Positions 9,255 through 54,924 of a DNA stretch of 64,000 nucleotides are shown here, in pieces (the stretch's first letter is position 1; every line of letters begins with the position of its first letter). Position numbers and translations under genes: made by a program. The stretch spans positions 21,558-85,557 of the forward strand of contig JAFXAK010000016.1 in the NCBI GenBank assembly GCA_017517135.1. Reading direction: 5' to 3'. This DNA is from Clostridia bacterium. GTDB lineage: Bacteria; Bacillota; Clostridia; Oscillospirales; Acutalibacteraceae. The notes below the pieces were generated by a model that searched no databases, had not been told where the DNA came from, and worked only from the letters and a program-made list of their open reading frames with translations.

Positions 9255-10754
9255 ATGTACACACAAGTAGAGTTATCATCCTACATAGATGATTTAGAAA
9301 ATCTCTCGTATGAAAATACGATTGAGTTTTTGGAAAAAAATAAGAAAACTGAAAATTTTCAAGCATTAGTTGAGCATATATGCAATATATCATTAGATAT
9401 TATTCAAAGGACTTTTTATAAATATGATTTGTCCAACGAGCAAAATACAGTCATTGATACATTTGTAAAAGCAACTAAATATATAACAACCGAAGCTTTG
9501 TATTATTACAAGGCTGTTGCATGCTATTTCAAAAACGATCGAAAAAATACAATCAAATATCTCAAAACGGCAAAGGATATAGGATTTTTTAGTGATAATA
9601 AATCCGATTTTACCATTGATGAATTTGCACTATGTTTTATAGCACCATTTAAAAATGGTTATCCGGGATTTTGGGATGATATTTATTATTTACTTTCTGA
9701 TTTACCTTTGGAAAAAGGAGTTTTAGATTTATGTAAAGCTGTTGATGTTTTTTATAATTCAGAGGATACATTATCAATAAATTCAGCGTTAATTAATGTT
9801 TTAACCGTAAGTCCTGAAAGTTTAGTTGTTAAAGAGATGCTCGCAATAAATTATTATAACGAAGGCAAATGGGGTAATGCAGTTGCATTATTAGAGCAAA
9901 TCGGCGAAAAAACAACACTGCTATTTAGTGATGATTTATACTTTATGCTGGGTTGGGGTTACGGAAAACTAAAAGAAACAGTCAACGAAATAGCTGCATA
10001 TAAAAAAAGCTATGAAATATATCCTGAAGGAAATTCCACACTAAACAATCTCGGATATGCTTACTATAAAGCAAAACAATACAACAAAGCGATAGAATGC
10101 TTTGAGGAATGTATAAAAAATAAAGCAGATCTTAAATATTCTGCTAACAACTATGTTCGCACATTACTTGCTGTTCACAGATATAAAGATGCAAAGCAAT
10201 TTATAAAAAATTCCCCTGTGAAAATTTATAAGAATTTGCTTGACAAAGTAACAGCAGCCCCTAATTCCAATGCACAAATCAAGAATGATAAAAATATCGA
10301 ATTACTTGAAGATCATTACACAATTTGTGAAAAAGATATTAATATCGGTGTTAAAAAACAACAATTTACAAGTGAAAAAATTCTCGAAGATGAACTTGCA
10401 TTGAGAATTGAGTCAGGTATCCCTGTTTTTAGTAAAAAACTGAAAATGTACAGAAGAAATGGGATATATGGGAGACAGTATATATTATCTAACGGCAAAA
10501 GACCTGATTTGTTAGCAGAAGACGATGAAGGCAATTTATATGTAATTGAATTAAAGAAAGATAGTGGATATGATGATGCCTATGAACAGACTGTTGATTA
10601 TTTAAATTGGTTTGATGCTAATTGGGGAAATAGTTTTAATAACATCTATGGAATAATATGCCTTAATAATCCAACATCAGATTTATTAAACAAAATTCAT
10701 AAAAATAAACGAGTAAGGGTTTTTGAATATCAGATTTCATACACTGAATTATAA
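9255..10754 (+). CDS. TPR protein with C-terminal NucS-like nuclease domain
   Basis: 499 residues. Residues about 70-330 are alpha-helical with TPR-like units, the clearest being NNLGYAYYKAKQYNKAIECF. The last 130 residues look like the C-terminal catalytic domain of NucS/EndoMS, a PD-(D/E)xK nuclease: an EDEL helix start, YGRQY, then RPDLL (Asp about 418) and VIELKK (Glu 432, Lys 434). The protein lacks the N-terminal DNA-binding half of NucS and has a TPR scaffold instead. The gene is visibly richer in A and T than its neighbours, has its own promoter and terminator, and sits alone, so recent acquisition is likely. A defence or DNA-repair role is inference; no partner gene was found. Confidence 0.7.
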   Translation: MYTQVELSSYIDDLENLSYENTIEFLEKNKKTENFQALVEHICNISLDIIQRTFYKYDLSNEQNTVIDTFVKATKYITTEALYYYKAVACYFKNDRKNTIKYLKTAKDIGFFSDNKSDFTIDEFALCFIAPFKNGYPGFWDDIYYLLSDLPLEKGVLDLCKAVDVFYNSEDTLSINSALINVLTVSPESLVVKEMLAINYYNEGKWGNAVALLEQIGEKTTLLFSDDLYFMLGWGYGKLKETVNEIAAYKKSYEIYPEGNSTLNNLGYAYYKAKQYNKAIECFEECIKNKADLKYSANNYVRTLLAVHRYKDAKQFIKNSPVKIYKNLLDKVTAAPNSNAQIKNDKNIELLEDHYTICEKDINIGVKKQQFTSEKILEDELALRIESGIPVFSKKLKMYRRNGIYGRQYILSNGKRPDLLAEDDEGNLYVIELKKDSGYDDAYEQTVDYLNWFDANWGNSFNNIYGIICLNNPTSDLLNKIHKNKRVRVFEYQISYTEL

Positions 10755-33824: not shown

Positions 33825-33853
33825 TTGACTTTTGTTTGAGTTTATTCTATAAT
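33825..33853 (+). promoter_or_regulatory. Promoter of the membrane protein/STAND operon
   Basis: TTGACT (33825-33830), 17-bp spacer, TATAAT (33848-33853); a near-consensus site dedicated to the operon. Confidence 0.8.
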
Positions 33854-33879
33854 AATAAAAAAGGAAAGGGAGAAAATAT

Positions 33880-34356
33880 ATGTTGGATTTTTTCTGTAAT
33901 ATTTCATTGGGAGAATTTCAATGGACAGAGATTGTTTATGCTGTTGGCGGTTCTTTTATCGGTATTTTTGTTCCGTTGTTTATTGAAAAAAGAAAAGACC
34001 GCCGTCAGAAAAAAGAGGCACGAAAAAAATTGCTGTTCAGCCTGAACCGCGAGTTGGATTCTATATTACAACAGATTGAAGAAAACAAATCCGATATTTT
34101 TTCTTTCACAACCTTTGTGTGGCAATCAAGCATAGCAGCCGGCATGTTGCCGGATATGCTGGCTGATAAATCCATACAGGGTGAATTGCTGATAGAAATC
34201 TATTCTGAACTGTCACTGCTTCAGGAATTGCACAATGATTTTTGCCAATGCACCCAGGAGGAAAATCTGCAGGATATCTGGAACAGCATCACACAAAAGC
34301 GCAATGAAATATATACAAAAATAGCACAGTATCGTAATAGCAGTAATATTCGCTGA
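33880..34356 (+). CDS. Small one-helix membrane protein, partner of STAND NTPase
   Basis: 158 residues, start after GGAAAGGGAG. Residues about 18-36 (IVYAVGGSFIGIFVPLFIE) form one membrane helix, followed by a strongly basic patch (KRKDRRQKKEARKK) that should lie in the cytoplasm, then a helical domain with coiled-coil character (LNRELDSILQQIEENKSD and ITQKRNEIYTKIAQYRN). No known domain. Its stop lies 14 bp before the STAND gene, with no terminator between, so the two are one operon. A membrane-acting effector or anchor for the NTPase is a reasonable guess, not shown. Confidence 0.7.
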   Translation: MLDFFCNISLGEFQWTEIVYAVGGSFIGIFVPLFIEKRKDRRQKKEARKKLLFSLNRELDSILQQIEENKSDIFSFTTFVWQSSIAAGMLPDMLADKSIQGELLIEIYSELSLLQELHNDFCQCTQEENLQDIWNSITQKRNEIYTKIAQYRNSSNIR

Positions 34357-34370
34357 AAGAAGGTATTTTT

Positions 34371-37300
34371 ATGTTTAACGGCAGAAGGTATAACCAAAAC
34401 ATAGAGAAGCTCTGGGAGCTGAACGAAGAAAAATCTAATAATGCTATTGACAGTAAATCTGTTAATGACAGCCATTTTCAGAAAATCAATGATGCAGAAA
34501 ATCATACGAAGCTGATATTAAAAACCGGTCAGACGCAGTATGTGGATGGTATCAAACAGAATATTATTGATATAATCCGCTCATGGCTGCAGGAAGAAAA
34601 CAGCAAAATCTTTACTCTTTACGGAAAAATGGGTTCCGGCAAGAGCTTCTTTTCAGCCCGTCTGTATCAGGAAATCAGTGCTGATAAAAATCACTATGAT
34701 ACTGTGGTTTTTACCAGTCAGCAGCTCTACCGAGATACTGCAAATGTATATAACATGCTGATTTCCTTGGCACACCAGCTGTTTAACTCTGTTGAACACT
34801 GCAACACATATTTTTCCGAACACCATCTGCGAATTGATTCAATCGCTGACCTCACAGAGGATGTTTTAATCAATGCTTTTGAGGGAGCAGCTCTTCAGAA
34901 AACAGTATTTATAATCATCGACGGTCTGGATGAATATCCCCGTCAGGATTGTGAAATGTTTCTGGAAACTCTTGGTATGCTGCGTCAGCGGATTAATCCG
35001 CGTGTTAAAATATTTTTCTCATCACGCCCCGAAGCATATATAATATCACAGCTGCAAAATGATTACGGATACAGCTCATATCAAATTGAGCCGAATGATG
35101 AGCAGAGCCTCGCAGACTGCTCACGCTTTCTTGATGCCAAATGTACTAAAGCTGATATCCCGATGGATGAGGAGCTAAAGAGGGTACTGATTGAAAAAAG
35201 TGAATGCAGTCTGAAATATCTGGAATGCTTCTTCAATGACATTTCCTGCGGCTCCATTCAGGTCACTTCAGATTTTATTGAAAGCTTACCTATGGGCTTA
35301 TCAAATTATTACCGTGATCAGCTTGTGCGATACTTTGGCAATGAAGGTATCAGCTTCTATCAAACAAAAATAGTTCCGTTACTGGAGTTGCTGTGTGTGG
35401 CATGGCATCCGATTACTATTGAAGATGCGGCAGACATTCTTGGTTGCCGTGAATCCGACATCAACAGCATAATATCCCGTTCCGGAACATTGTTATGGCG
35501 CAACAACCGCTATGTAATGCTGTATCAGTCGGAATCTATCCGTGAGTTTTTAATAGATGAGCGCTATTGCCCGGAAAAATACCGTATAAGCAGAGATAAC
35601 GGCAATCAATACATATTGCATCGTCTGGAAGAAATGATGGACAACGGCGAGGACATAGAAAACAATATGTATTTGTTCAGGTGTGCCGTAGAACACATTA
35701 CCCAGCAGGATCGCATTACAAACACAGACCGGGCACTGCTGATACGAATAATCGCCTGCTTTTCCCTTAAAGCAGATATTATGTTCAACCTCAGCAGACG
35801 GATATTGGAAAAGAATGATCGCGAAATACAGGCCTTCTTCAGATATCTTATGGCAAATTCCGAAATATCACCGATTCTTCAGGATGCCTTTTGTATTCGC
35901 ATGATTGCCGCAGCAATAACCGAACAGCAGACGAAAAAGCTTCTTGATGTATTGGATATGCTGGAAGGCCCTGAAAAATTTGCGTTTTTAGTAAATTACG
36001 CTCGCGGCAGGATAGGCGAAACCCAAGGACATTTTGATGTTGCCTTAAAATACCTGAAGCTGGCTGATGCTTCGCTCGGAAACGATGAACACTCACAGTT
36101 CAGACATATCTATATTGAGGATGAGCTTTGTCGTGTATACCGACAAACAAACTGTATTACAGAAGAAGAAAATACACAGCGCCATATTATGAATATTTCT
36201 GCTTCCGAACAGCTTCTTCTGAAATATCAGAATAATGAAGGTCCTGAATACCTGATTATGATGCGAAATTTATTTGTATCATATGACCAGCTGGCACGGC
36301 TGTGCCTTAAGCTGGAAAAGCAGGCAGATCCTTCATTGCGCGAAAACTATGCAAATAAACTTCAGGCACTGCTGAAAACAGATATAATCGATTACAACAA
36401 GGCAGGATATTTCCTTCTGACTGCTGAAGTCTGCTGGCAAAAAGCGCTTAAGCTTACAAAAATTTGCCAGAAGCACGATACATGTTCCGATTCCCGGATT
36501 TACGATTTGCATTTTGCTTTTTATGCATTGGGAGAATTGTATTTCCGCAAAGATTTTCCTGCCTACAACCCCGTCAACGGTCTGCAATATTTTGAAGACG
36601 GTCTGTCTTCTATTATGGATATCGCCTTACAGCCGGAGTCTCATGTCAGATACATTAAAGTGCCCATAAAGCTTTACAAAAAGCTGACTTTGCTGTATAC
36701 AGAAATGGGCGAATACAGACAAGCAGAAAAATATCAAACAGAAAATACCAGACTGTGCGATCTGTATGCATTATACCATCCCAGTGTCAATGCCGCTTTC
36801 GAAAAATGCCTGTGCTATGAAGCAGCGGCAGATATAATAAAAGCAGAAAAGGGGATTTCTGCAGCAGAAAACAGCTATCTGGAGGCTGTTCAGCATTACC
36901 TTGAATGCGCCCAGAAATACAGCAACCTGTTTGTTCTGGATGCCCCCCGTATAGTTTATCATAAAATTGCCTTAGAATATAAAAAAATGGATAATCATCT
37001 GAAATCCATTGAATTCTCAAAGCTGGAGCTGGAGGAAACAAAGAAGCGCTACCAAAAAGATCAATCCGATAAGATGCTTTGGAATATGGGGATTCTTCAG
37101 GAGCATATTGCCCATGCATTACGAAAAACCGATCCGCAGGGCTCCGTCTCACAGCGCATAGAATTATTGGAGTCCTCTTTTGAGATTTATAATGAGCTGG
37201 CGGAGAAATATTCAGAAACAGAAAGATATTTTGTTTCTCCTTTTATAGTGCTTCCTCAATTGTTCTCTGATTATCTGGCTGCCCAAAAGTGTGATTCCGC

Positions 37301-38180
37301 GCTGAAATGCCTGGATAATGCCATTTTACTGGGTAAGCGAATAGCACCGGACACCCGATACTGTGATAATAGTCTGGATTTACCCATACAAATGTATTTT
37401 GCTGTCATGCAGCTTATCAACGATGAAGCAATTCATAAAAAATACCTTGATGCATGCAAGGAATATTTTACATTTGTGTCAACATATTGTCCTGCGGAGA
37501 AAATAGCAGCTGCAAAGTTTGAATTACTGCTGAATGATTGCCGGGTTATTATGAAAACAAGTGGTATTGAAGCAGCTGAGCCTTTGTTTGCAAACTATAT
37601 ACAGCAGGCTAAGGAATATGCCGAAAAATATCCGTCTCCGGAAAGCTACGAAAATATTGTTCGCGGATATATAACACTATATCAAGGATACTGGAAAGAC
37701 AACCAACAGGAAAAAGCTGGTCTTGCCCTGCAGAATACATTTATAACTCTGGAGCAAGGTATAAGACAGTGTCATAATTCTGTGGATATCCGAATTGTAC
37801 AATGTCAAACATATGGTACTTTGGCAAGTATTTACAGCAATAGCTCCGATATTAATCAGACAAACGATGCTATAGCTCTGTTTCTTATGCAGATTATGAA
37901 TTATATACAATTATACAATGATTCCGAAAATCCATCCGATAAAGATATTTTCAACAAATTGGTAATAGATGTTACTCATAACCTGATTGCTGTTCTGGAA
38001 AAACATGACAGTTTAATTGAGCTTTACAGAGCTTCTCCCGCTTGTTCTGAAGAAATACTGTTGGGTTATGTAAAAGTTATACTGGCAGCCTATACATATC
38101 TTGTTGCGCTGAATCAACCCGAAGCCCAGGGAAAGTTAGATTATTACCGGGATTTGCTGAATCAACTGAACAAGGAATAA
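34371..38180 (+). CDS. NACHT/STAND NTPase with TPR-like sensor region
   Basis: 1269 residues. Residues 1-60 have no known effector domain. The NACHT-type NTPase has Walker A GKMGSGKS (85-92), Walker B VFIIIDGLDEYP (179-190) and a sensor SSRPE (217-221). A winged-helix part follows at about 340-410 (HPITIEDAADILGC, YQSESIREFLIDE). From about 520 to the end the protein is all helices with TPR-like pairs (ALKYLKLADASLG, YRQAEKYQTENTRLCD), the expected ligand-sensing part. Proteins of this plan act as switch-type sensors, in bacteria often against phages (Avs, bNACHT). The effector may be the membrane protein encoded just before. A defence role is inferred. Confidence 0.8.
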   Translation: MFNGRRYNQNIEKLWELNEEKSNNAIDSKSVNDSHFQKINDAENHTKLILKTGQTQYVDGIKQNIIDIIRSWLQEENSKIFTLYGKMGSGKSFFSARLYQEISADKNHYDTVVFTSQQLYRDTANVYNMLISLAHQLFNSVEHCNTYFSEHHLRIDSIADLTEDVLINAFEGAALQKTVFIIIDGLDEYPRQDCEMFLETLGMLRQRINPRVKIFFSSRPEAYIISQLQNDYGYSSYQIEPNDEQSLADCSRFLDAKCTKADIPMDEELKRVLIEKSECSLKYLECFFNDISCGSIQVTSDFIESLPMGLSNYYRDQLVRYFGNEGISFYQTKIVPLLELLCVAWHPITIEDAADILGCRESDINSIISRSGTLLWRNNRYVMLYQSESIREFLIDERYCPEKYRISRDNGNQYILHRLEEMMDNGEDIENNMYLFRCAVEHITQQDRITNTDRALLIRIIACFSLKADIMFNLSRRILEKNDREIQAFFRYLMANSEISPILQDAFCIRMIAAAITEQQTKKLLDVLDMLEGPEKFAFLVNYARGRIGETQGHFDVALKYLKLADASLGNDEHSQFRHIYIEDELCRVYRQTNCITEEENTQRHIMNISASEQLLLKYQNNEGPEYLIMMRNLFVSYDQLARLCLKLEKQADPSLRENYANKLQALLKTDIIDYNKAGYFLLTAEVCWQKALKLTKICQKHDTCSDSRIYDLHFAFYALGELYFRKDFPAYNPVNGLQYFEDGLSSIMDIALQPESHVRYIKVPIKLYKKLTLLYTEMGEYRQAEKYQTENTRLCDLYALYHPSVNAAFEKCLCYEAAADIIKAEKGISAAENSYLEAVQHYLECAQKYSNLFVLDAPRIVYHKIALEYKKMDNHLKSIEFSKLELEETKKRYQKDQSDKMLWNMGILQEHIAHALRKTDPQGSVSQRIELLESSFEIYNELAEKYSETERYFVSPFIVLPQLFSDYLAAQKCDSALKCLDNAILLGKRIAPDTRYCDNSLDLPIQMYFAVMQLINDEAIHKKYLDACKEYFTFVSTYCPAEKIAAAKFELLLNDCRVIMKTSGIEAAEPLFANYIQQAKEYAEKYPSPESYENIVRGYITLYQGYWKDNQQEKAGLALQNTFITLEQGIRQCHNSVDIRIVQCQTYGTLASIYSNSSDINQTNDAIALFLMQIMNYIQLYNDSENPSDKDIFNKLVIDVTHNLIAVLEKHDSLIELYRASPACSEEILLGYVKVILAAYTYLVALNQPEAQGKLDYYRDLLNQLNKE

Positions 38181-41386: not shown

Positions 41387-41415
41387 TTGCATTTATTTTT
41401 ATTTTGTGTTAGAAT
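41387..41415 (+). promoter_or_regulatory. Promoter of the dockerin/Cys-repeat gene
   Basis: TTGCAT (41387-41392), 17-bp spacer, TAGAAT (41410-41415). Confidence 0.7.
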
Positions 41416-41459
41416 ATAAAAGTATATTTGTATCTTCAGGACTCTTTAGGAGGATTTTT

Positions 41460-44384
41460 ATGAAAAAGCTTTTATTTTCACTGATTTTATGCCTTGTTAC
41501 GCTTATCGGCTTGTGTGCTTTTGCATCTGCCGAAGAGATTGACCTCGGCGGATATGAAATAGCTGAAAGCAAGGAGCATTGCTCAGGTATGGGGGATGTA
41601 AATTCCGACGGAACGGTCACCTCTGCTGATGCAAGACTTATTCTGCGTCAGGCGGTAGCGCTCGAACGCTTCACTTCCGAGCAAAAGGCGGTTGCCGACC
41701 TCAACGGTGATGCTATAATAAATTCCGCAGATGCAAGACTTGCATTGAGACTTGCAGTAAAGCTTGACGAGCAGCCTCCTCATTCAACCGAAAATGTTGT
41801 GCTTTCGGAAGCTACCTGCTCAGCTAAGGGCATTGTAGGTCAGATCTGCAAGGCATGCAATAAAGTAGTCACCTATTCACAGACAAGCGTTTCGGGACAT
41901 ATTGTCGGCAACTGGGTAACGGTAAAGCAGGCAACCTGCTCAGAAAACGGTCTGAAGCAGAAGATATGCACAATATGCGGTAAGGTGCTTGAAGAAAAGG
42001 AAACAACAGCATCACACACCTTCGTATATGAAGACGGCTTCAAGGGTGCGGACTGTATGAAGGTTTTAACTGTAAAACAGACCTGTACACAGTGCGGTGT
42101 CACACAGAGCAAAATTGTTAACCCCATAGGAAAGCACTCCTTCGCATGGGTAACAACCAAGCCCGCTACCTGCTCAAAGCCCGGACTTGCCGAATACAAA
42201 TGTACCGTCTGCGGTGACACGGGTAACGGTCAGACAAAGACTGTCAACTGTTCGGGGGTCAAGATTGAGCAGACAGTAAAGGCTCCCACATGTACAGAAA
42301 ACGGTATTTCTGCAAAGGTTTGCTATGTATGCGGTGAACAATCGGACGAAAAGGTATTGCCCGCAACAGAGCATGAATATAACTACAATATCAAAAAAGT
42401 GGTAAAGGAACCTACCCACCTTGAAACAGGTACTGCCAAGGTAAGCTGTAAGAAATGCGGTGCTACAAAGGAAATTGAAATAGAAAAGCTCAATCACACC
42501 GCAGAGGATACGGGTGTTATCATAAAGGCTCCCACCTGTTCAAAAGAGGGTATCAAACAGGTTAAGTGTAAATACTGCGGAATTGTTGAAGAAGCTATCC
42601 CCGCAACAGGTGAACATATAAAGAGTGAAGCCAAGAAAACCGTAAAGGCGGCTACCTGTACATCAAACGAGCTTATCTCATACTATTGCACGGTATGCGG
42701 CAATTATGAGGGTATATATGAGCCCACGGAGCTTAAGGACACAAAGCTTCCCCACACTCCCGCAAGCAAATGGACTCAGACAAAGGCTCCCACCTGTTCA
42801 AAGGAAGGCACAAAGGTTAAATACTGTACTGTATGTAACGAGATTGCACTCACCGAAAAGGTTGCAAAAACCGCACATACACCTGCAGAAAAATGGGTTG
42901 AAACAAAAACTGCAACCTGCTCAGTTGCGGGTGAAAAGGTTAAATACTGTACTGTCTGCAACCGGGTAGCACAGAGAGCTGCTACAGAAAAAACAGCTCA
43001 CTCTCCCGCAACCTACTGGTCAGTTATCAAAGAGGCTACCTGCTCGGCTGAGGGCACAATGGCTAAGCTTTGCACAAACTGTAAAGCACCTACAAGCACA
43101 AAAGCCATCCCGATGACCTCACACACTCCCGGCAGCTGGAAAACAATTACTCCCGCAACCTGCATAAAAGAGGGTGTTAAAGCAAGACTTTGTGCTGTTT
43201 GCTCAGCTCAGATTGAAACAGCTTCAATCAAGAAGGCTGCTCACACTCCCGGTGCTTGGGTAACAACAAAGGAAGCTACCTGTACAAAAGAGGGTACAAA
43301 AATAAGACTCTGTTCAATCTGTAATGTTCAGACCGACAGCGGTATTGTTCCCACAAATGATAATCACTCCCCCTCAAACAAATGGACAGTTATAACCGAG
43401 CCCACATGTGTAAAAGCAGGTCTCAAGGCTAAGCTTTGCACGGCTTGCTCCGCTCAGGTTGAAACAGATACTATAGAAAAAACAACAACACATACACCCG
43501 CAGACCAATGGACAACCGTTAAAGCGGCAACCTGCTCGGCTGAAGGTGTCAAGGTCATAAAATGTGTACACTGCTCGGCTAACCTGCAGACCGCAGCCAT
43601 TAAAAAGCTTGACCACACTCCCGGCTCCTGGCAGACCAACAAACAGCCTACCTGTTCAAAGCCGGGTGAAAAGATAAAGCTGTGCACGGTATGTAAGAGC
43701 ATAGCTGCAACACAGACAATCCCCGCAACAGGTAATCATACATACGGCGGATCATGGATAACAACAGAGCACGCAACCTGTGTTTCTGAGGGTGAGGCAA
43801 GAAGATACTGTTCTAATGCAGACTGCAATGCATACGAGACAAAGGCACTTGCAAAGAATTCTTCAAACCATGTTTCTCAGGAAACATACATAAAGAATGC
43901 AAAAGAGACCTCCTGTAAGGAAGCAGGCTACACGGGTGATGTTTATTACAAGTGCTGTGACAATCTCAAGGAAAGCGGCAAGCCCATCACAAAGCTTGAC
44001 CATAGCCCCGGTGAGTTAATCCTTGAAAGCTTCGGCACGGTAAACGAAGACGGTACTGTTTCAGCAGGTAAAAAGTGCATAAGATGTACCGTATGCTCTG
44101 AAATCGTCTACAGCGAGGACTTTGAAAAGCTTGTTGTTATCGACACAGCTTCTCTGTTCAAGGCATTGCCCGACAGCTCACTCACAAACGATGAGGATGC
44201 AATACTCTACTTTGAAATCAACGGCGAAGCAGGACAGACCTATGAGGTATCCTATGTATACGACTCACTTGATGCTCCCGTTATATTTGAAGCACAAAGC
44301 GGCACGGTATATTCAATAGACCTCTCTCTGATTCCCGCAGATGCGGTCATCTACCTTGCTGTTGCAACACAATACACTGAATAA
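41460..44384 (+). CDS. Secreted dockerin protein with about 18 Cys-rich repeats
   Basis: 974 residues, start after AGGAGG. Signal peptide 1-23. Residues 45-100 form a type I dockerin: GDVNSDGTVTSADARLILR and DLNGDAIINSADARLALR, both with Ca-binding Asp/Asn. From 110 to about 880 run some 18 tandem units of about 40-55 residues, each built as (A/P)TC-(S/T)-x-x-G ... CxxC ... H(T/S)P, for example ATCSVAGEKVKYCTVC. Three Cys and one His per unit could bind zinc or form disulfides. A beta domain ends the protein. Dockerins normally bind cohesins; no cohesin or cellulosome gene is nearby. Adhesion or surface display is inferred. Confidence 0.8.
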   Translation: MKKLLFSLILCLVTLIGLCAFASAEEIDLGGYEIAESKEHCSGMGDVNSDGTVTSADARLILRQAVALERFTSEQKAVADLNGDAIINSADARLALRLAVKLDEQPPHSTENVVLSEATCSAKGIVGQICKACNKVVTYSQTSVSGHIVGNWVTVKQATCSENGLKQKICTICGKVLEEKETTASHTFVYEDGFKGADCMKVLTVKQTCTQCGVTQSKIVNPIGKHSFAWVTTKPATCSKPGLAEYKCTVCGDTGNGQTKTVNCSGVKIEQTVKAPTCTENGISAKVCYVCGEQSDEKVLPATEHEYNYNIKKVVKEPTHLETGTAKVSCKKCGATKEIEIEKLNHTAEDTGVIIKAPTCSKEGIKQVKCKYCGIVEEAIPATGEHIKSEAKKTVKAATCTSNELISYYCTVCGNYEGIYEPTELKDTKLPHTPASKWTQTKAPTCSKEGTKVKYCTVCNEIALTEKVAKTAHTPAEKWVETKTATCSVAGEKVKYCTVCNRVAQRAATEKTAHSPATYWSVIKEATCSAEGTMAKLCTNCKAPTSTKAIPMTSHTPGSWKTITPATCIKEGVKARLCAVCSAQIETASIKKAAHTPGAWVTTKEATCTKEGTKIRLCSICNVQTDSGIVPTNDNHSPSNKWTVITEPTCVKAGLKAKLCTACSAQVETDTIEKTTTHTPADQWTTVKAATCSAEGVKVIKCVHCSANLQTAAIKKLDHTPGSWQTNKQPTCSKPGEKIKLCTVCKSIAATQTIPATGNHTYGGSWITTEHATCVSEGEARRYCSNADCNAYETKALAKNSSNHVSQETYIKNAKETSCKEAGYTGDVYYKCCDNLKESGKPITKLDHSPGELILESFGTVNEDGTVSAGKKCIRCTVCSEIVYSEDFEKLVVIDTASLFKALPDSSLTNDEDAILYFEINGEAGQTYEVSYVYDSLDAPVIFEAQSGTVYSIDLSLIPADAVIYLAVATQYTE

Positions 44385-54006: not shown

Positions 54007-54924
54007 TCATTTTTTTGCATTTCTGTGCAGGAAAATTCCGTCTTCATAGCCTTGAATTCTCTTATCGGTATCGGCACGACGCAGTCTTTCCTGTGCCCAT
54101 ACGCAATACTGCTTGTTTTTTTCAACGGAAAAATATTTTCGTCGGAGCTTCTTTGCCGTAACGGCAGTTGTTCCCGAGCCTCCGAAGGGATCAAAGACAA
54201 AATCATTTTTGTCTGAGCTTGCTAAAATAAGCTTTGCTATGAGCTTTTCGGGCTTCTGTGTGGGATGTGCGGTGTTTTCGCTCATAGACCAGAACGGTAC
54301 CGTTATATCGTCCCAGAAGTTTGACGGACAGGTAAGCCTTGTGTTGCCGTTTTCTCCCTCATTCCAGTCCTTGGGCCTGCCGTTTTCCCTGTAGGGAGCA
54401 AGCACCTGTCTTTGCACCTTGACGGCATTAAGATTGAAGGTGTAATTCTCACCCTTTGTGCAGAACCATATGTCCTCCATAGAGTTCTTCCAGTTGCGTT
54501 TTGCACCTCTTCCCTTTTCCCGCTGCCAGGTTATGCGGTTTCTTACCGTGAAAAACTCGGGAAGAATATTTGCTATAATTATGCTCGTCTGCCAGTCACA
54601 GCAGACATAGAGCGTAGCGCCGTCCGTCATAACTCTGTATACTTCACTGAGCCACAGCCTTGTGAATTCGGTATAGCTTTCGCGGTCAGTCTTTCTGAAA
54701 ATATCTCCGCCGTAGTCCTTTGTAAGGTTATACGGAGGATCGGCTATTACCAGGTCGAAAATACCGTCTTCAATTCTTGAAACGACCTCAAAAAAATCCC
54801 CGTGAACAAATAAGTTTTCAGCCGTTTCTTTATTTATTTTACCCTTGGGACATTCTGCCCTTTCAAAAAGCTCTTTTGAGTCCTCAAGAGAGATATTTAT
54901 GGTTTTGTTTCTCCCGGATTTCAT
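54007..54924 (-). CDS. Orphan site-specific DNA methyltransferase, beta class
   Basis: 305 residues, start after GGAG. Catalytic motif IV DPPY (62-65) comes before the SAM-binding motif DPFGGSGTT (245-253), the beta-class order of N6-adenine or N4-cytosine methyltransferases; HPTQKP (220-225) precedes it as usual. The target-recognition part is about residues 135-215. No restriction endonuclease gene is near, so it is an orphan or solitary enzyme with a regulatory or protective role. Recognition sequence unknown. Divergent from rny, promoter at 54956. Confidence 0.9.
   Translation of the reverse strand: MKSGRNKTINISLEDSKELFERAECPKGKINKETAENLFVHGDFFEVVSRIEDGIFDLVIADPPYNLTKDYGGDIFRKTDRESYTEFTRLWLSEVYRVMTDGATLYVCCDWQTSIIIANILPEFFTVRNRITWQREKGRGAKRNWKNSMEDIWFCTKGENYTFNLNAVKVQRQVLAPYRENGRPKDWNEGENGNTRLTCPSNFWDDITVPFWSMSENTAHPTQKPEKLIAKLILASSDKNDFVFDPFGGSGTTAVTAKKLRRKYFSVEKNKQYCVWAQERLRRADTDKRIQGYEDGIFLHRNAKK

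What the first reader, a model, noticed from the sequence alone, without database searches (positions are those of the whole stretch)
33825..38180. Two-gene membrane protein plus NACHT/STAND NTPase operon: candidate immune system
Seen: a near-consensus promoter, a 158-residue one-helix membrane protein with basic and coiled-coil parts, then 14 bp later a 1269-residue protein with Walker A, IIDGLDEYP Walker B, SSRPE sensor, winged helix and about 750 residues of TPR-like helices. Known: STAND NTPases such as Avs and bNACHT sense phage proteins and trigger an effector. Here the STAND protein has no effector domain at its N-terminus, so the separate membrane protein could be the effector. I do not recognise this pairing as a described system. 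It sits beside a decayed regulator, as islands often do.
Basis: partly seen in the sequence, partly recalled or inferred. Interest (0 to 1): 0.78.

Follow-up and report, generated by a model that had tools for sequence, protein, structure and literature searches.

The report
Rare membrane-protein plus NLR-like gene pair
A Clostridia bacterium carries a rare two-gene unit, a small one-helix membrane protein made together with a large NLR-like sensor protein, which looks like an immune system whose killing part is a separate membrane protein instead of being fused to the sensor; the defence role is inferred, not tested.

Summary
A (33880-34356) is a 158-aa one-helix membrane protein; 14 bp on, B (34371-38180) is a 1269-aa NACHT/NPHP3_N-type STAND protein with a TPR-fold array. 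Two MAG contigs carry the same promoter-A-B cassette (A 66% and 47%, B 53% and 45% identity; gaps 14 and 15 bp), with different neighbours. All 3 convincing A proteins found lie before a B. No B orthologue was found in 26 other genomes of the genus, 397 others sampled of the family or 383 of the order. So this is a rare, patchy, paired unit, not a core regulator. B's nearest other relatives are TIR-NACHT-TPR proteins: 8 of 10 scanned have a Pfam TIR domain where B has only about 65 residues, and none of 12 shows an A. Best reading: an NLR-like defence module whose fused effector is replaced by a membrane protein in trans. Defence, A-B contact and membrane damage are inferred. The neighbouring regulator is not decayed, and no defence island was seen among the flanking genes scanned. 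New variant of a known kind.

The parts
33825..33853 (+). promoter-like site, TTGACT-17-TATAAT
   Evidence: 11 of 12 consensus matches; similar sites before A in L018 and L019 (read)
33880..34356 (+). gene A, 158 aa, one TM helix then an all-helical domain
   Evidence: ORF; hydrophobic segment; helical model, mean pLDDT 60.6; homologues 66% and 47%
33928..33987 (+). TM helix of A, about residues 17-36, with invariant G24, S25, F26, G28, P32
34371..38180 (+). gene B, 1269 aa, NACHT/NPHP3_N-type STAND protein
   Evidence: homologues 53% and 45%
34458..34568 (+). conserved segment before the NACHT core, B residues 30-66 (73% and 54% identity); candidate contact with A
   Evidence: the contact is inference
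34623..34646 (+). Walker A, residues 85-92
34908..34934 (+). Walker B, residues 180-188
35361..35585 (+). likely winged-helix part, residues 331-405, 95% and 75% identical to L018 and L019
35658..38177 (+). helical repeat array, residues about 430-1269, TPR-type superhelix, least conserved part apart from the N-terminal 29 residues
   Evidence: (residues to 880 modelled)

Best explanation
A self-contained two-gene defence module of the NLR/STAND kind with its effector in trans. B rests as a nucleotide-bound NACHT protein; its TPR superhelix recognises an invader protein or a disturbed host protein; nucleotide exchange lets B assemble. B carries no effector domain, so the assembly recruits and clusters A, probably through the conserved segment before the NACHT core. 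A sits in the cytoplasmic membrane with its helical domain inside; clustering packs its GxxxG-containing TM helices together and opens or depolarises the membrane, stopping or killing the infected cell. Shown: anatomy, pairing, rarity, changing neighbourhoods, selection on A. Inferred: defence, A-B contact, assembly, membrane damage.
For: A and B are adjacent with 14-15 bp gaps in 3 of 3 loci, and both are conserved. Rare and patchy: no orthologue in 26 other genomes of the genus or 383 others of the order. Different neighbours each time, with a tyrosine recombinase near L018's pair and a RepA_N gene beside L019's. The nearest other relatives of B have a TIR domain before the NACHT part (8 of 10 scanned) and no A, so A stands where an effector is missing. 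The closest solved folds include STAND-TPR 6mfv, Avs3 and SAMD9. A conserved GxxxG lies in the TM helix. NACHT core, winged helix and A are conserved while the repeat array diverges. A TIR-STAND-TPR protein is a tested antiphage system with swappable N-terminal effectors, and TM proteins of defence systems are believed to be suicide effectors (PMC9122126, passages).
Against: No functional test. No PADLOC model fits beyond a partial match of B (PDC-M16A, E 5.6e-4, 50 residues). No match in plasmids, phages or viral contigs. No defence genes among the 8 flanking proteins scanned. A resembles no known pore or toxin. Only three pairs are known, all from closely related B proteins, so pairing is one evolutionary association, not three independent ones.
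Confidence: 0.5

Rival explanations
1. A is the membrane anchor or membrane-stress sensor and B acts through another, unseen output: A feeds a signal into B instead of executing it.
For: A has one TM helix and a long cytoplasmic helical domain; its short outer segment GEFQW is invariant. A published two-gene conflict system is proposed to use a 5' single-TM protein with small residues in the helix as sensor (PMC7159879, section 33).
Against: B has no recognisable output domain, so the executioner would be missing from the operon.
Confidence: 0.22
2. The pair is a non-defence signalling or envelope-control device: a TPR sensor with an NTPase switch acting on a membrane partner.
For: No defence island in the flanks scanned; the TPR part also resembles peptide-sensing Rap proteins.
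Against: Rare, patchy, changing neighbourhoods; closest relatives are TIR-NACHT-TPR proteins.
Confidence: 0.17
3. A toxin-antitoxin-like pair in which A holds B in check.
For: Small gene first, large gene second, tightly coupled, as in many such operons (general knowledge).
Against: B has no recognised toxic domain and A is a membrane protein.
Confidence: 0.07

Closest known systems
TIR-STAND-TPR (TIR-NLR) antiphage protein of P4-like satellites (PMC9122126, passages)
   Same: STAND NTPase with C-terminal TPRs; B's nearest unpaired relatives have this architecture
   Different: effector TIR is fused at the N-terminus there; B has none and is paired with membrane protein A
bNACHT proteins (PMC12169576, passages)
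   Same: NACHT core with a C-terminal sensor part
   Different: described as tripartite with an N-terminal effector; B lacks it
Avs (AVAST) STAND proteins
   Same: Avs3 is among the best fold matches
   Different: fused effector (recalled); no PADLOC Avs model matches B up to E 10
Fungal NWD2/HET-S and PNT1/HELLP pairs (PMC12881547, passages)
   Same: adjacent genes for an NLR and a membrane-acting effector in trans
   Different: those share an amyloid motif; no shared motif between A and B was found
EACC1 two-gene conflict system, System 4 (PMC7159879, section 33)
   Same: 5' gene for a single-TM protein with small residues in the helix; two genes
   Different: there the 3' gene has a caspase or cyclase and the TM protein has alpha+beta extensions; here NACHT-TPR and helical

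Membership tests
bNACHT / bacterial NLR-related | NACHT-type P-loop NTPase with Walker A and B | tested here: met
   Pfam NACHT and NPHP3_N over cut-off; motifs
bNACHT / bacterial NLR-related | C-terminal sensor part | tested here: met
bNACHT / bacterial NLR-related | N-terminal effector domain in the same protein | tested here: not met
   about 65 residues before the NACHT part, no Pfam, NCBIfam or PADLOC domain there
bNACHT / bacterial NLR-related | protection against phage | not testable with these tools
   needs bench work
TIR-STAND-TPR (TIR-NLR) | N-terminal TIR domain | tested here: not met
   no such domain in B, while 8 of 10 scanned relatives have it
TIR-STAND-TPR (TIR-NLR) | STAND NTPase followed by TPR-type repeats | tested here: met
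Avs (AVAST) | match to a PADLOC Avs model | tested here: not met
   only PDC-M16A listed for B up to E 10
EACC1 System 4 | 5' single-TM protein with alpha+beta extensions | tested here: inconclusive
   single TM and small residues present; the low-confidence model shows helices only
EACC1 System 4 | 3' protein with caspase or cNMP cyclase domain | tested here: not met
   no such domain in B
HET-S/NWD2-type amyloid pair | amyloid motif shared by effector and NLR | tested here: not met
   phmmer of A against B: best stretch E 0.84; a dedicated amyloid-motif model was not available
CARD-NLR | CARD and protease components and gasdermin-like effector in the operon | tested here: not met
   operon holds only A and B between a GntR/aminotransferase regulator and an MFS gene

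The most novel reading that the evidence does not exclude
A is a dedicated membrane-permeabilising effector switched on by direct assembly with an effector-less bacterial NLR: a bacterial NLR plus membrane-executioner gene pair that works without fused effector, second messenger, protease or amyloid relay, and arose by replacing the TIR of a TIR-NACHT-TPR ancestor.
Probability: 0.28. Interest if true: 0.75.

Novelty: new variant of a known kind. Interest (0 to 1): 0.52.

Why it matters
If true, it would show that the bacterial NLR platform can drive a separately encoded membrane protein directly, and it gives a small two-protein system of about 4.4 kb with its own promoter in which NLR-to-membrane signalling could be studied. 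It would also widen defence searches: A has no significant profile match and B only a weak, partial PADLOC match.

Tried and rejected
Core regulator: rejected. Decayed regulator as a sign of an island: rejected. Insertion site: in the 9 MFS and 9 regulator loci of the genus looked at, the two flanking genes are not near each other within the 1.5 kb held, so no empty site could be shown. Flanking repeats: only short imperfect pairs.

Searches that found no relative: plasmids and phages with A and with B; viral contigs, five scans; PDB by sequence with B; first genome-contig scan with B alone. PDB by sequence with A gave APE2256-family CRISPR proteins at E 0.005 and MLKL at E 0.18, over 54-63 residues; taken as chance. 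PHROGs: best for A is E 6.7e-4, a family of unknown function, one member of three; not pursued.

The A profile in the class matched 15 other genomes at E 9.5e-4 to 0.03 (16 loci). I listed the ORFs of 8 of these 16 loci (7 genomes); by eye none has an A-like gene before a NACHT gene. The other 8 were not opened. L032, L037 and L042 score, but they were fetched by that very profile; the ORFs hit look like a riboflavin kinase/FAD synthetase type protein (L032, L042; name recalled) and a flavodoxin-like one (L037; recalled).

L009 was first taken as a B relative but is a TIR-TPR protein similar only in its TPRs. L017 holds two NACHT-TPR proteins with other N-termini.

Rows not independent: L024, L027 and L029 come from one MAG and have the contig sizes of G001 contigs C11, C13 and C141; L026 likewise G693 C213. 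L027 and L029 were not given to Pfam; TIR there rests on reading their N-termini. For L031 only 25 of 56 families were shown, so a TIR there is not excluded. L026's picked ORF gave no TIR; a TIR-like stretch lies in frame upstream of that start. L024's contig ends 197 bases before its gene, so an A there cannot be excluded. The tree warns that long branches meet, and L031 is a very long row.

Literature: no description of this pairing in search listings 51, 52, 66, 67, 68, 87, 88, nor in the passages read. These cover only the open-licence library; the bNACHT founding paper was not held, and no supplements were read, those of DefensePredictor (PMC13092281, passages) included.
Full report
What is there. 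The window holds an intact two-gene operon: A, 158 aa, at 33880-34356, and B, 1269 aa, at 34371-38180, both on the + strand, 14 bp apart. A promoter with 11 of 12 consensus matches and a 17-nt spacer lies at 33825-33853, although promoter-like sites as a class are not enriched over shuffles there. The G+C of the region (about 0.40) does not stand out from the window.

Protein A. One hydrophobic segment lies within residues about 12-40 in all three homologues. In the window protein, 11 basic against 5 acidic residues follow it (residues 35-60); in the other two the balance is 7:5 and 7:7. With the acidic N-terminus this suggests, by the positive-inside rule (general knowledge), N-terminus out and helical domain in. 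The TM helix holds invariant G24, S25, F26, G28 and P32. The model is helical but weak (pLDDT 60.6) and finds no PDB match at E 0.001. The best family matches of A are weak: Pfam 0.027, PADLOC 0.006, NCBIfam 0.022, PHROGs 6.7e-4.

The pairing. Searches with single proteins found little. B: in 60 relatives only the window's genome and three 23-24% hits in G001; own genome only among 391 of the class at E 1e-10; own genome and three partial 25-26% hits among 398 of the family. A: own genome only among 60 relatives. A scan of the genome-contig collection with an alignment of B and distant kin gave 14 loci, of which two are true relatives: L018 (an Oscillospiraceae MAG) and L019 (a sheep-colon Clostridia MAG). 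Both have an A directly upstream: A 66% and 47%, B 53% and 45% identity, gaps of 14 and 15 bp. Both have a consensus-like promoter with 17-nt spacing before A (read by eye). A profile of the three B proteins over 384 genomes of the order found only the window's own at E 1e-15. A profile of the three A proteins over 391 genomes of the class found the own A and 15 genomes with weak hits (E 9.5e-4 to 0.03) judged chance; 8 of the 16 loci were opened.

Neighbourhoods. The window's flanks are a GntR/aminotransferase regulator (MocR type, name recalled) and an MFS transporter. In L018 a tyrosine recombinase (E 3.5e-26) and a camelysin-like gene lie upstream; in L019 a RepA_N replication initiator gene lies downstream. 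Three loci, three settings, with mobility-type genes near two. Of 8 flanking window proteins between 26.8 and 40.3 kb, none matches PADLOC at E 0.001. Of the 44 ORFs listed for the window, 10 were scanned with Pfam and 12 with PADLOC, so defence genes further out are not excluded; two candidates are named under Noticed in passing. The regulator is not decayed: 11 other genomes of the genus have homologues at 50-56% identity over nearly its whole length, and 8 of 9 ORFs compared are 351-365 aa.

Where the effector went. Apart from the two pair loci, one search gave 12 relatives of B. Ten were scanned with Pfam and 8 show TIR_2 before the NACHT part. Of the two without, L026 has an in-frame TIR-like stretch upstream of the start I picked, and L031 had only 25 of 56 families shown. 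L027 and L029 were not scanned; they share the N-terminal sequence type of L024. The match to B's NACHT part begins at residue 177-242 in 10 of the 12, at 95 in L026 and at 283 in L031, against about 65 in B. A profile search of ORFs of 40 aa or more found no A in any of the 12 (best E 1.8), with the caveat that L024 holds only 197 bases upstream. On a tree of the NACHT and winged-helix region with 15 rows, the three pair-B form one group (100/100) on a long branch; the tool warns that long branches meet. So presence of A and absence of a fused effector go together, most simply with one origin.

Selection. Between window and L018, A has dN 0.19 and dS about 2.0 (near saturation). By region, identity to L018 is 38% for B residues 1-29, 73% for 30-66, 72-73% for 67-330, 95% for 331-405, 50% for 406-540, 46% and 40% for the two halves of the rest, and 68% for A. 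L019's B is 177 residues shorter, mainly in the C-terminal array. A conserved engine and partner with a changing repeat array is what a sensor under shifting pressure would show; relaxed constraint in the repeats would look similar.

Mechanism and comparison. A TIR-STAND-TPR protein is a tested antiphage system in which the N-terminal effector can be replaced by SIR2 or nuclease domains, and TM proteins of defence systems are believed to be suicide effectors (PMC9122126, passages). bNACHT proteins are described as tripartite with an N-terminal effector (PMC12169576, passages). The pair fits that logic with the effector in trans. Fungal NLR/HET-S pairs work in trans through a shared amyloid motif (PMC12881547, passages); no shared motif was found here. 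A published two-gene conflict system with a 5' single-TM component (PMC7159879, section 33) is similar in layout but not in domains. CARD-NLR systems use several components (PMC13236601, passages). I therefore propose an NLR-like module with a membrane effector in trans (0.5), with an anchor or sensor role of A (0.22), non-defence signalling (0.17) and a toxin-antitoxin-like pair (0.07) as rivals. No step beyond sequence and predicted structure has been tested.

Noticed in passing
window 9255-10754: A 499-aa TPR-containing protein in the window's lowest G+C stretch (about 0.31), near the tmRNA gene; partial PADLOC matches to candidate defence families PDC-S11 (E 7.9e-10, residues 404-458) and PDC-S02.
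   Followed up: partly
window 54007-54924 (-): DNA N6/N4 methyltransferase (Pfam E 3.9e-47; PADLOC type II methyltransferase E 3.3e-66); whether a restriction partner lies nearby was not examined.
   Followed up: partly
window 41406-44384: 992-aa protein with many diverged repeats of the kind ATCxxxGxxxxxCxxC, read by eye; not searched.
   Followed up: no
L012, L013, L014 (G001): One genome of the same genus carries at least three similar TIR-NACHT-TPR genes (same contig sizes as L024, L027, L029), grouped at 99/96 in the tree: a small paralogous family of NLR-like proteins.
   Followed up: partly
L017:5718-13426: Two 1229-1274-aa NACHT-TPR type proteins divergently placed, with a start of what looks like a type I restriction methylase gene (recalled, by eye) further along.
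   Followed up: partly
L009:4875-8459: 1194-aa protein with TIR and about a dozen TPRs, no NACHT in Pfam; its TPRs resemble B residues 681-946.
   Followed up: partly
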